Positions 49 to 3,166 of a stretch of 23,204 nt of DNA are shown here, piece by piece. A program made the translations under genes and the position numbers. The stretch lies in the IMG/VR virus record IMGVR_UViG_3300031919_000012, positions 1 through 23,204 of that record; one strand, written 5' to 3'. The stretch comes from a virus. Positions within the stretch are counted from its first letter, which is position 1. Each line of letters starts with the position of its first letter. Under the pieces are notes generated by a model. That model saw nothing but the letters and a program-made list of their open reading frames with translations, was not told the DNA's origin and did no database searches.

Positions 49-774
49 ATGAAGCCTTTAAATAGAAAAAATTATGGTAGTATTCCGCACCTACTTGGTT
101 CAAAACTTGGTGCAACTGATAAGTATGTGCATGAAGGACAGCACAGAATATTAACAGAAAAAACTAGAGATAAGCACGATTATGTTATAGTTACTGAAAA
201 ATACGATGGTAGCAATGTAGGTATAGCAAAGGTGAATGGTAAAATAATAGCAATTACACGCTCTGGATATTTAGCAGAAACAAGCCCTTATACACAACAC
301 CATTATTTTGCTGAGTGGGTAAAATTACAGGGTGATAGATTTAATTTTATAGGAGAAAACGAACGCATTGCAGGGGAATGGATGATGTGTGCTCACGGGA
401 TTAAATACGATATATTAAAAGACCCGTTTATAGCATTTGATTACTTTATTTCAAATAATAAAAGGATGCTATATTCTGACCTTATAAGCAAAACAGCAAA
501 AGCAGAAATTGAAACACCTAGAATTATATTTCACGGCCACCAAGCATTTAGATTAGATTGGGCTTTGGAAGAGCTTAACAACAATAAACATTTGCATACA
601 GTAATTGCACACGGAAAACCTGAGGGGTTAGTTTATAGAGTTGAGCGAAAGGGAAAGTTTGATTATGCTGCAAAATTTGTTAGACAAGACCATCAATGCG
701 GAATTTATATAATAAATATTGCAGAGGAAAATTTAACGTGGAATGTTAATCCTAATAGTTTTGTCAAAAACTAA
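49..774 (+). CDS. RNA ligase, T4 Rnl2-like nucleotidyltransferase
   Basis: This 241-residue protein has the ordered motifs of the RNA ligase family (PF09414). Motif I is EKYDGSN with K51 as the predicted AMP-accepting lysine. A motif III-like GEWM lies near residue 110, motif IV EGLVYR at 192-197, and motif V AAKFVR contains K209. Family members seal nicked or broken RNA through a lysyl-AMP and an adenylylated 5' end; in phages a known role is repair of tRNA cut by host anticodon nucleases. The protein is shorter than T4 Rnl2 and seems to lack much of a C-terminal specificity domain. The purine-rich stretch GGGAGG ends 9 nt before the ATG and supports this start. The gene lies about 0.9 kb upstream of a tRNA whose halves meet in the anticodon loop, so a link is possible but inferred. 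The family call is secure; the substrate is unknown. Confidence 0.88.
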   Translation: MKPLNRKNYGSIPHLLGSKLGATDKYVHEGQHRILTEKTRDKHDYVIVTEKYDGSNVGIAKVNGKIIAITRSGYLAETSPYTQHHYFAEWVKLQGDRFNFIGENERIAGEWMMCAHGIKYDILKDPFIAFDYFISNNKRMLYSDLISKTAKAEIETPRIIFHGHQAFRLDWALEELNNNKHLHTVIAHGKPEGLVYRVERKGKFDYAAKFVRQDHQCGIYIINIAEENLTWNVNPNSFVKN

Positions 775-905: not shown

Positions 906-1544
906 ATGGAAAAAACAAAAATGACTATTCACAGAGCATTATCAGAATTAAAACTGATTGATGCAAGAATTGAAAAGGCTATTAATGTAGTTGAACCAAC
1001 TGGTTTAATACAATTAAATAAGCTTGTTAATGGTTTTTACGCAAAAGATGATTTTGAAAAAGACGTAAAAGCTAAGTTTCAATCAGTTACAGATTTGATT
1101 GAGCGTAAAAACTCTATTAAATCAGCTATCGTAAAAGCAAACGGAGCAACTATCGTTAAGGTTGGAGAAAAAAAAATGACCATTGCCGATGCAATTAACT
1201 TTAAGGCTGTAATTGCAGTTAAAAAGACATTGATTGTTCAGCTGATAAAAAAGCACAATATTGTAAAAGCAAAATTTACGCAGGAAAACGAGAAAATAAG
1301 CAATGTTGCTTTAGAAAATGCTAAAATTATGATTGGCAAACAGGGCGATGATAGGGTAAAACCTAACGATGAAGATGTGAAAAACATTGTTGAGCCTTTT
1401 GTAAAAAGAAACGAATTTCATTTAGTTGACCCTTTGAAAGTTGAAGAACTTATAGAGAAGTTGCAAAATGAAGTAAATGAATTTGAGGCAGAAGTTGACG
1501 CTGTGCTTTCTGAAATTAACGCAATTACAATAATTGAAATTTAA
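906..1544 (+). CDS. Unrecognised phage protein, helical
   Basis: I do not recognise this 212-residue protein with confidence. It is rich in Lys, Glu, Ile and Ala and looks almost entirely helical. A charged N-terminal segment (1-30) and the last 45 residues look like coiled coils, and the middle contains RKNSIKSAIVKANG followed by KKMTIADAINFK. The layout recalls small helical proteins of the DIP1984 type, but the resemblance is weak. It has no signal peptide, membrane segment or catalytic motif. It follows a TAnnTTTG promoter element with a leader of about 20 nt, so it probably opens its own transcript, which would run on into the structured RNA region at 1561-1883. It is clearly coding: one long frame with an ordinary start and codon use like its neighbours. 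Its function is unknown. Confidence 0.75.
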   Translation: MEKTKMTIHRALSELKLIDARIEKAINVVEPTGLIQLNKLVNGFYAKDDFEKDVKAKFQSVTDLIERKNSIKSAIVKANGATIVKVGEKKMTIADAINFKAVIAVKKTLIVQLIKKHNIVKAKFTQENEKISNVALENAKIMIGKQGDDRVKPNDEDVKNIVEPFVKRNEFHLVDPLKVEELIEKLQNEVNEFEAEVDAVLSEINAITIIEI

Positions 1545-1560
1545 TAATTAATAAATTGGA

Positions 1561-1883
1561 TGCCGATGCGAAAAGCCAAAATTTAATCCCCTGCTTAAGG
1601 GTAGAAAAGCAACCATATGCTAAATGGACGCAAACGGTTCTTAGGGTCATAGGTTCGATTCCTATATTTTCCGATGGAAAGTTAGCTCAGCTGGTTAGAG
1701 CATAAGACTGCAAAAACTGAAAAGTTTAAATTATAAAGTTCAAAGCAGAAAGGTTAAAATTAAAAGTTCTTACGCTTTAAAGATTAAAATATAAAAAGCA
1801 AAGTTCTTTTAAATCCCTGATAAAAGTTTTTATGAGTGATGATTAATAAACTTATGGTTTTGTACAGGGCTGCATCGGCAGCC
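1561..1883 (+). ncRNA. Structured RNA region enclosing a permuted tRNA
   Basis: The 418-nt gap between the genes ending at 1544 and starting at 1963 has no convincing ORF but strong RNA structure. TGCCGATGCG (1561-1570) pairs with TGCATCGGCA (1871-1880) over nine Watson-Crick pairs plus one G-U, closing a domain that contains the permuted tRNA at 1639-1714. Internal hairpins include AGCA/TGCT (1608-1621), AAACT-GAAA-AGTTT (1714-1727, GNRA-like loop, directly after the anticodon loop), CTTTTA/TAAAAG (1806-1811 with 1821-1826) and AAGTTT/AAACTT (from about 1825 to 1853). CCCTG (1815-1819) can also pair with CAGGG (1865-1869). In unpermuted order the closing helix would be one split hairpin, as in a permuted intron-exon design. 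However, I could not find the usual group I P7 sequences, so the class of RNA is unknown. Confidence 0.6.
1639..1714 (+). tRNA. Circularly permuted tRNA-Cys(GCA)-like gene
   Basis: The 3' half comes first: anticodon stem strand TCTTA (1639-1643), variable loop GGGTC, T stem ATAGG/CCTAT with loop TTCGATT (1649-1665), acceptor strand ATTTTCC (1666-1672), then G1673. After AT comes the 5' half: acceptor GGAAAGT (1676-1682), D stem GCTC/GAGC with loop AGCTGGTTA (1685-1701), anticodon stem TAAGA (1703-1707), and loop CTGCAAA (1708-1714). TAAGA pairs fully with TCTTA, and GGAAAGT pairs with ATTTTCC with one G-U. D- and T-loop signatures are canonical. The anticodon reads GCA (Cys), but G follows the acceptor stem, whereas bacterial tRNA-Cys normally has U73. 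No CCA is encoded. No matching 5' half lies upstream and no matching 3' half downstream. It could instead be the remains of two tandem tRNAs. Confidence 0.72.
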
Positions 1884-1962: not shown

Positions 1963-2868
1963 ATGCTTAATTTATTTGGTGAAGAAACTCCTGAACCAGT
2001 TAAAAAGCTAAAAGATTGGTTTGTCGTACCGCCTTTTTCAATTCTTAATTCTGCTTCAAAAGATTGGCAAGAAAAGAAAAAAAAGTGGATGATTAAGATT
2101 AATGATAAAGCTCAGGCACGCAGCAATAAGCTAAGATGTTATACTGATGTTGGTGTTGATTTTATGAATATAAAAGGCGATATAACAAGCGTATTAGACC
2201 CTGTTTTATGTGAAGTATTACTAAGTTGGTTTACAGAAGATAAGCACATATGCTTTGACCCTTTTGCAGGCGATGCTGTTTTTGGCTTCGTAAGTACATA
2301 TAAAAATAGAATATTTAAAGGTATTGAGTTAAGAAAAGAGCAGGTTTTATTTAATCAAACACTCTTAGATACTTTTGAACTTAACGGAAGATATATTTGC
2401 GACACTTCCGAAAATATGAATGATTATATTGAAGATGAAAGCTGTGATTTTATTTTCAGCTGCCCACCTTATGCAGATTTAGAAATATATTCAGACGACC
2501 CAAAAGACCTTAGCACAATGGAATATGATGAGTTTTTTAATGTTATAGGTAGAATATTAACGAATACATACAAAAAACTTAAAAAAAACCGTTTCGCATG
2601 TATTGTGATTGGAGAAGTTAGGCACAAGAAAACAGGCGAATATATCGGTATAGTTCCGAATGTTATTAATATAATGCGTGATGCAGGATATAAATATTAT
2701 AATGAAATGATATTACAGACGCCAATAGGTAATTTGCACATGAGAGCAGGGCGTTATATGAACCAAAATAGAAAGATTGGTAAGATGCACCAAAATGTAT
2801 TAGTTTTTTACAAAGGAGATTTAAACAAAATTAAAAACAACTTTAAAAGCTTGAAGGATGAAAGCTGA
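1963..2868 (+). CDS. Phage DNA methyltransferase (amino-group type)
   Basis: This 301-residue enzyme should transfer methyl groups from S-adenosylmethionine to adenine N6 or cytosine N4 in DNA. The SAM-binding motif I is DPFAG (99-103), and the catalytic motif IV is SCPPY (166-170), a variant of the D/S-PPY signature. The N-terminal VPPFSILNSASKDWQEKK segment, TSVLDPVLCE (75-84), GIELR (120-124) and the motif downstream of CPPY (DLEIYSDDPKDLS) match a methylase family common in phage genomes. No restriction nuclease is adjacent, so this is probably an orphan enzyme that protects phage DNA from host restriction (inference). It starts after a T- and G-rich leader (GGGGGG at 1951-1956). Its last 11 bp overlap the SpeD-like gene, so the two are probably translated together. 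The target sequence cannot be read from the protein. Confidence 0.88.
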   Translation: MLNLFGEETPEPVKKLKDWFVVPPFSILNSASKDWQEKKKKWMIKINDKAQARSNKLRCYTDVGVDFMNIKGDITSVLDPVLCEVLLSWFTEDKHICFDPFAGDAVFGFVSTYKNRIFKGIELRKEQVLFNQTLLDTFELNGRYICDTSENMNDYIEDESCDFIFSCPPYADLEIYSDDPKDLSTMEYDEFFNVIGRILTNTYKKLKKNRFACIVIGEVRHKKTGEYIGIVPNVINIMRDAGYKYYNEMILQTPIGNLHMRAGRYMNQNRKIGKMHQNVLVFYKGDLNKIKNNFKSLKDES

Positions 2869-3166
2869 GATATACAATATTAGGGGATGGGTAGCAGAAA
2901 CAGACCCGACAAAATTAAAAAACATTTATAGTGATATGTTGGTGTTAAGTGGGTTCGACATACTTAACTTTCAAGATTATTATTTTAATCCGATCGGATG
3001 GACTGGATTATGGTTGCTTGGAGAAAGTCACTTTGCAATTCACACATTCCCAGAGGAAAATAAAAGCTATATAGAATTAAGTAGTTGTAATGAGGATTAT
3101 TATAATTACTTTCTTTTTAACCTTAATGGCTTTGAAAAAGCCAAAGAGCGAGGGCAAAAAAAATAA
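2858..3166 (+). CDS. speD: SpeD-like pyruvoyl-dependent decarboxylase
   Basis: This 102-residue protein aligns with the small prokaryotic (class 1b) S-adenosylmethionine decarboxylases. S57 in GESHF is the expected self-cleavage site that becomes the pyruvoyl group, H62 lies in AIHTFPE, and C77 in ELSSC is the expected catalytic acid. Their spacing equals S63, H68 and C83 of the Thermotoga maritima enzyme. SpeD makes decarboxylated SAM for spermidine synthesis. Phage and bacterial homologues are also known that decarboxylate ornithine or arginine, so the substrate is uncertain. It is slightly shorter than usual (about 120-130 residues). No spermidine synthase gene is nearby. It begins inside the methyltransferase gene, an 11-bp overlap. 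Products could be polyamines that neutralise packaged DNA, or the role could be lowering SAM; both are inference. Confidence 0.82.
   Translation: MKAEIYNIRGWVAETDPTKLKNIYSDMLVLSGFDILNFQDYYFNPIGWTGLWLLGESHFAIHTFPEENKSYIELSSCNEDYYNYFLFNLNGFEKAKERGQKK

What the first reader, a model, noticed from the sequence alone, without database searches (positions are those of the whole stretch)
1639..1714. Circularly permuted tRNA-Cys(GCA)-like gene in a phage
The 3' half of a tRNA precedes its 5' half with only AT between the discriminator and G1. Acceptor (7 bp with one G-U), D, anticodon (5 of 5) and T stems are all intact, and D and T loops are canonical. The break falls in the anticodon loop, just 3' of the anticodon. 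Permuted tRNAs are established in some algae and archaea, where splicing endonuclease and ligase mature them; bacteria lack that endonuclease. G instead of U73 argues against ordinary Cys charging, so it may be a tRNA mimic.
Basis: partly seen in the sequence, partly recalled or inferred. Interest (0 to 1): 0.9.

Follow-up and report, generated by a model that had tools for sequence, protein, structure and literature searches.

The report
tRNA-mimic arm in a phage RNA
The shuffled "tRNA" is real but is very probably not a tRNA gene: it is a plug-in tRNA look-alike arm of a ~325-base RNA that a phage encodes directly behind a small protein gene; the same protein-plus-RNA pair occurs in many phages, including T5, and similar look-alike arms occur in Y RNAs that other phages encode together with the Ro60 protein.

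Summary
In detail: T arm, acceptor, D arm and anticodon stem are all intact, in permuted order, at 1639-1707. The tRNA-gene reading does not. The element is one arm of a structured RNA (1558-1883) that directly follows a 212-aa gene (906-1544, phrog_1491). The gene has homologs in 721 INPHARED phages, T5 included. Of 81 distinct downstream regions, 66 carry the RNA's 3' motif (7.8 expected); typical members have a closing helix followed by CGAAAA and tandem 7-nt AAAGTTC-like repeats. In 17 members the variable slot holds a permuted cloverleaf; in others, T5 included, it does not. Cloverleaf helices are kept through extensive compensatory change and nearly all tRNA-elbow loops persist, but anticodons are lost or altered and acceptor stems are shortened to as little as 4 bp and capped by UUCG or GAAA. 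That is the YrlA/Y-RNA tRNA-mimic design; Rfam YrlA is the best hit, below its cut-off. UUCG-capped permuted cloverleaves are common in phages and usually accompany Ro60 (23 of 30 records). This family's records lack Ro60, and L031 looks like a chimera of the two RNA types. One relative matches RAGATH-27 in its 5' domain. Best reading: a tRNA-mimic docking module of a phage ribonucleoprotein, mechanism inferred.

The parts
906..1544 (+). Gene of a 212-aa, mostly helical protein (phrog_1491, labelled 'tail fiber'); directly precedes the RNA; probable RNA partner (inferred)
   Evidence: phrog_1491 E 1.8e-54; 721 phage records incl. T5 ORF080; AF2 pLDDT 84, pTM 0.58; weak fold match to 3kdq
1558..1883 (+). 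Whole structured RNA, as bounded by its closing helix
   Evidence: Closing helix and 3' motif conserved in dozens of phages; scaffold nhmmer hits in relatives
1558..1568 (+). Closing helix, 5' strand (pairs with 1873-1883; one A-G mismatch)
   Evidence: Compensatory change in L006 (GCGGAAGC/GCUUCCGC); own helix median 12 bp, mean 12.3 vs 7.8 with swapped tails
1569..1574 (+). CGAAAA motif directly after the closing helix
   Evidence: [CT]GAA directly after the helix in 55 of 64 members
1589..1611 (+). H-type pseudoknot CCC-UGCUU-AA-GGG-UAGAA-AAGCA
   Evidence: Sequence plus equivalent pseudoknots in relatives (generic score clearly above shuffles in only 18 of 64)
1613..1627 (+). Hairpin CCAU-AUGCUAA-AUGG
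   Evidence: Compensatory CCAA/UUGG (L006) and AUACG/CGUAU (L036)
1639..1707 (+). Permuted tRNA-like cloverleaf: anticodon-stem closure, T arm, acceptor capped by GAU, D arm
   Evidence: All pairs; compensatory changes over 13 members; YrlA hit
1721..1769 (+). Seven tandem heptads AAAGUUU AAAUUAU AAAGUUC AAAGCAG AAAGGUU AAAAUUA AAAGUUC
   Evidence: 7-nt periodicity over 77 members; run of 7 is modal, control runs rarely exceed 4
1811..1872 (+). 3' motif AAAU-CCCUG ... CAGGG-CUG (pairs 1815-1819 with 1865-1869)
   Evidence: 66 of 81 vs 7.8 expected; spacing 48-56 nt in 68 of 69
1873..1883 (+). Closing helix, 3' strand, followed by UUUU

Best explanation
1639-1707 is a tRNA-mimic arm, not a tRNA gene. 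It sits in the variable slot of a ~325-nt phage RNA encoded just downstream of, and probably co-transcribed with and bound by, the phrog_1491 protein. It joins the scaffold through its anticodon stem and presents a tRNA elbow (D loop against T loop) and a capped acceptor helix. By analogy with YrlA, whose tRNA-like domain is modified by TruB and DusA and binds PNPase, the arm most likely docks the phage RNP onto a host enzyme that recognises the tRNA elbow. Shown: structure, conservation, genetic linkage, and loss of features needed for decoding and charging. Inferred: protein binding, expression and docking partner.
For: Own-strand pairing in 13 cloverleaves: anticodon stem 64/65, T 65/65, acceptor 78/82, D 52/52, against 0.59, 0.69, 0.54 and 0.96 with swapped partners; 11-13 different strands per stem except D (3). 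Erwinia phages Rebecca and AH06 are 88% identical over the RNA, yet the acceptor changes from CGGG/CCCG to UAGCCU/AGGCUA with all pairs kept. Acceptor caps: UUCG, GAAA, GAU or a CCA-containing linker hairpin; down to 4 bp (L039, Rebecca). L006 and L039 lack an anticodon; L005 has GUA where L004 has GCA. The T loop keeps UUC[AG]A throughout the collected set and the D loop keeps GG in 12 of 13. YrlA is the top Rfam family for window, L004-6, L028, L031, Rebecca and L219. UUCG-capped permuted cloverleaves: 102 viral stretches; 23 of 30 records tested encode Ro60. L031 looks like a chimera: Y-type 5' part on this family's 3' scaffold. YrlA biology: PMC8394870, PMC7790460.
Against: No expression or binding data. 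The window's own copy has an intact 7-bp acceptor, and L004, L005 and L007 encode CCA. L007, L097 and L036 keep whole anticodon arms and close through or near the variable region. Some members lack the domain (L057, L065, L093, T5), so it is not essential to the RNA. YrlA scores stay below the curated cut-off.
Confidence: 0.78

Rival explanations
1. A true circularly permuted tRNA gene: the flanks are excised, the anticodon-loop ends are joined (perhaps by the RNA ligase at 49-774), and the AU linker is removed by RNase P and tRNase Z.
For: Intact cloverleaf; GCA anticodon; PF09414 RNA ligase two genes upstream; CCA encoded in L004, L005, L007.
Against: Capped or shortened acceptors, missing or altered anticodons, some members without the domain. 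No RNA-ligase homolog in the loci of 18 relatives examined (loci of 3-15 kb). The break lies in a variable-arm region in L007, L097 and L036. The break site runs into conserved scaffold.
Confidence: 0.06
2. A genuine Y RNA of the Ro60 (TROVE) system.
For: Same tRNA-like domain; closing helix followed by CGAA recalls the Ro60-binding stem; YrlA is the best Rfam hit; L031 chimera.
Against: No TROVE gene in the window or in any of the 12 virus records of this family tested, against 23 of 30 records with Y-type RNAs. The RNA is about three times longer, with heptads and its own linked protein. E. coli (T5 host) did not ring in the TROVE control.
Confidence: 0.08
3. Neutral insertion: the slot tolerates any stable fold, and captured tRNA pieces persist without function.
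For: Slot content varies; simple hairpins in L065 and L057; at least two separated groups carry the domain, with several gains or losses.
Against: Full compensation with elbow loops conserved while acceptor end and anticodon are not; whole acceptor helix exchanged between near-identical RNAs; same module in Ro60-linked RNAs.
Confidence: 0.1
4. A permuted self-splicing intron (group I, permuted intron-exon type) that releases a circular tRNA exon.
For: Order 3' half, 5' half of the tRNA inside conserved flanks is the permuted intron-exon order.
Against: No group I or II intron match at E up to 10 in 1500-2000; flanks persist where no tRNA exon is present (T5, L057, L065).
Confidence: 0.02

Closest known systems
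YrlA / bacterial Y RNA tRNA-like domain (Rfam RF02553)
   Same: T arm, acceptor-like hairpin and D arm in permuted order, joined to the rest through a basal stem; Rfam's best hit
   Different: Below the YrlA cut-off; no Ro60 in the records; embedded in a ~325-nt RNA with pseudoknot, heptads and a linked phrog_1491 protein
RAGATH-27 RNA (Rfam RF03100)
   Same: In relative L219 the 5' domain (end of closing helix, CGAAAA, pseudoknot region) scores 92.1 bits, above the cut-off of 76.1, directly after a phrog_1491 gene
   Different: The Rfam model covers only 86 nt and is met above cut-off by that one relative; the window, T5 and the others tested are not recognised
Circularly permuted tRNA genes of algae and archaea
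   Same: Order of tRNA halves
   Different: No evidence of maturation; acceptor often capped and short, anticodon not kept
skipping-rope RNA (Rfam RF02924)
   Same: In Brevibacillus phage Jenst it lies between the phrog_1491 gene and the homologous RNA
   Different: A separate element; not found above threshold in 20 other loci

Membership tests
Circularly permuted tRNA gene | 3' half precedes 5' half with intact cloverleaf | tested here: met
Circularly permuted tRNA gene | Chargeable acceptor end and a kept anticodon across relatives | tested here: not met
   UUCG/GAAA caps, 4-bp acceptors, anticodon lost or changed
Circularly permuted tRNA gene | Maturation into a tRNA | not testable with these tools
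   Needs RNA from infected cells
YrlA / Y RNA | Permuted tRNA-like domain (T, acceptor-like, D) | tested here: met
YrlA / Y RNA | Score above the Rfam YrlA cut-off (69 bits) | tested here: not met
   35 bits in the window; at most 44.5 in relatives of this family
YrlA / Y RNA | Linked or co-occurring Ro60 (TROVE) | tested here: not met
   None in the 12 virus records of this family; fragments, so not absolute
YrlA / Y RNA | Ro60 binding to the basal stem | not testable with these tools
   CGAA after the helix is suggestive only
RAGATH-27 | Score above the Rfam cut-off (76.1 bits) | tested here: inconclusive
   L219 92.1 bits; no match in the window at E up to 10; others below cut-off
Permuted group I/II intron | Catalytic-core covariance match | tested here: not met
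   No match at E up to 10
tmRNA | tmRNA gene call or Rfam match | tested here: not met

The most novel reading that the evidence does not exclude
A widespread phage ribonucleoprotein, so far without an assigned function in the resources searched, made of the phrog_1491 protein and an adjacent RNA with a tract of about seven single-stranded 7-nt repeats (possibly a repeating protein-binding track). Its variable arm takes up interchangeable effector modules, including the tRNA mimic that other phages use in Ro60-linked Y RNAs.
Probability: 0.55. Interest if true: 0.8.

Novelty: new variant of a known kind. Interest (0 to 1): 0.62.

Why it matters
It turns an apparent oddity (a permuted tRNA in a phage) into a testable RNA-protein system present in T5, one of the classic model phages. 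It shows that tRNA mimicry of the Y-RNA kind is a swappable module among phage RNAs, including RNAs with no Ro60 in sight, and it puts the RAGATH-27 motif into a full-length RNA with a linked protein.

Tried and rejected
Group I or II permuted intron and tmRNA: no covariance match. RNA ligase as a conserved partner: no homolog in 18 relatives' loci. Ro60 as partner: absent from this family's virus records. 'Tyr' and other identities in relatives as decoding tRNAs: L005's GUA looks derived from the GCA of L004, which shares its linker. DNA similarity search of the intergenic region in isolated phages gave only short, mostly tRNA-gene matches. Pfam and NCBIfam did not name the protein. The fold search gave only an uncharacterised Corynebacterium protein, 3kdq (prob 1.00, E 3e-3), supported weakly by sequence (E 0.023). 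The generic pseudoknot scan separates only partly from shuffles. Literature searches found nothing on this module; the RAGATH and skipping-rope source papers are not held or could not be searched.

Full report
Observation. The permuted cloverleaf is in the sequence at 1639-1707 with every helix paired. ARAGORN sees nothing, and Rfam gives nothing at curated thresholds. At relaxed thresholds the best family is YrlA, the bacterial Y RNA with a tRNA-like domain (35 bits, E 5e-6, cut-off 69). The pairing order of that domain (T arm, acceptor-like hairpin, D arm) is the one seen here.

The slot in relatives. Four close relatives found through the upstream gene have the same intergenic slot with different cloverleaves inside conserved flanks. 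L004 has GCA with GCCA encoded; L005 has GUA with ACCA; L006 has no anticodon; L007 is a leucine-type cloverleaf whose anticodon arm is intact and which is closed through its variable arm. Further members are L028, L031, L036, L039, L041, L047, L095, L097, L170 and L219, plus Erwinia phages Rebecca and AH06. That makes 17 in this RNA family. Acceptors are capped by UUCG, GAAA, GUGAAA, GAU or longer linkers and shrink to 4 bp.

Selection on the fold. Over 13 cloverleaves cut by hand (12 of this family plus the Y-type RNA of L031), own-strand pairing is 98-100% for the anticodon, T and D stems and 95% for the acceptor. With strands swapped between members it is 59%, 69%, 96% and 54% (anticodon, T, D, acceptor); the D stem is nearly invariant and says little. 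Rebecca and AH06 are 88% identical over the RNA but have entirely different, fully paired acceptor helices. The T loop keeps UUC[AG]A throughout the set and the D loop keeps GG in 12 of 13; most members were found through the gene or scaffold rather than by T-loop search. Anticodon and acceptor end are not kept. The part under constraint is therefore the tRNA elbow and overall fold, not decoding or charging.

The larger RNA. The gene 906-1544 is phrog_1491. It has homologs in 721 INPHARED phages, including T5 ORF080, and in the annotated regions inspected a gap of a few hundred bases, usually gene-free, follows in most of them. KLEB27-3 is an exception, with annotated genes and no recognisable RNA downstream. 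In 81 distinct downstream regions, 66 have AAA[UC]-stem...stem-CUG, against 7.8 expected. Under a stricter spacing rule 69 do, with spacing 48-56 nt in 68 of them (this second count also allows CAG). A gapless closing helix of median 12 bp joins the two ends; swapped tails give a mean of 7.8 against 12.3. [CT]GAA follows the helix directly in 55 of 64. The tract before the 3' motif repeats every 7 nt: pair counts are 167, 150, 124 and 87 at 7, 14, 21 and 28 nt, about 10 at most spacings in between. A run of seven heptads is modal (23 of 77), and shuffled controls rarely exceed four. In the window the seven heptads are 1721-1769.

Relation to known RNAs. In L219 the 5' domain, directly behind a phrog_1491 gene, scores 92 bits for RAGATH-27 (cut-off 76). 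Other members tested do not reach that cut-off, so the link to RAGATH-27 rests on one relative. In Jenst a skipping-rope RNA sits between gene and RNA. A pattern for UUCG-capped permuted cloverleaves finds 102 viral stretches, most with fully complementary acceptors; 23 of 30 of these records encode Ro60/TROVE. None of 12 virus records of the present family does, although these records are mostly incomplete. L031 carries a Y-type RNA followed by an apparent chimera of Y-type 5' part and this family's 3' scaffold. The simplest account is exchange of the tRNA-mimic module between two RNA types.

History. In a protein tree the domain clusters in a Bacteroidota-phage clade (11 of 15 rows) and in Erwinia jumbo phages. 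Five gains or losses are needed, three forced by well-supported branches.

Mechanism. The domain is attached through its anticodon stem and offers elbow and capped acceptor. YrlA's equivalent domain is modified by TruB and DusA and binds PNPase, and it has been proposed as a competitive inhibitor of an anticodon nuclease (PMC8394870; PMC7790460). I therefore infer that this arm docks a phage RNP, built on the phrog_1491 protein, onto a host elbow-binding enzyme. The protein is predicted to be mostly helical with only an uncharacterised fold relative. Protein binding, transcription and the docking partner are untested.

Verdict. Observation confirmed; permuted tRNA gene rejected with good confidence; tRNA-mimic module of a phage RNA favoured. 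Novelty: new variant of a known kind for the tRNA mimic, within an RNA-protein module that I could not find described as a whole.

Noticed in passing
window 1721-1769; T5 (L080) and ~75 other members: A strict 7-nt periodic repeat tract (AAAGUUC-like, modally seven units) in the RNA; it looks like a repeating protein-binding track.
   Followed up: partly
L173-L272 (IMG/VR): Many phage contigs carry UUCG-capped permuted tRNA-like RNAs with Ro60 on the same record (23 of 30): phage Y RNAs appear to be common.
   Followed up: partly
L187, L194, L196, L222, L234, L236, L249: A possible third RNA type with a UUCG-capped tRNA-like domain and a CAGCAA motif; L187 and L196 were tested and have no TROVE on the record.
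   Followed up: no
window 49-774: RNA ligase gene (PF09414) upstream of the module; no homolog near the module in the relatives examined.
   Followed up: partly
L081 3643-3720: skipping-rope RNA (RF02924, 67.6 bits) between the phrog_1491 gene and the homologous RNA in Brevibacillus phage Jenst.
   Followed up: no
L110 3898-4005: drum RNA (RF02958, 47.7 bits) shortly downstream of the module.
   Followed up: no
L031, L039: The RNA persists without a phrog_1491 gene on the record; L039 keeps only what looks like the last few codons.
   Followed up: partly
window 906-1544: The 'tail fiber' label of phrog_1491 looks doubtful: small helical protein, in several phages among tRNA genes, linked to an RNA; weakly similar to 3kdq (and one member weakly to Pfam DUF6847).
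   Followed up: partly
window 2858-3166: S-adenosylmethionine decarboxylase-like gene (PF02675) in the phage.
   Followed up: no
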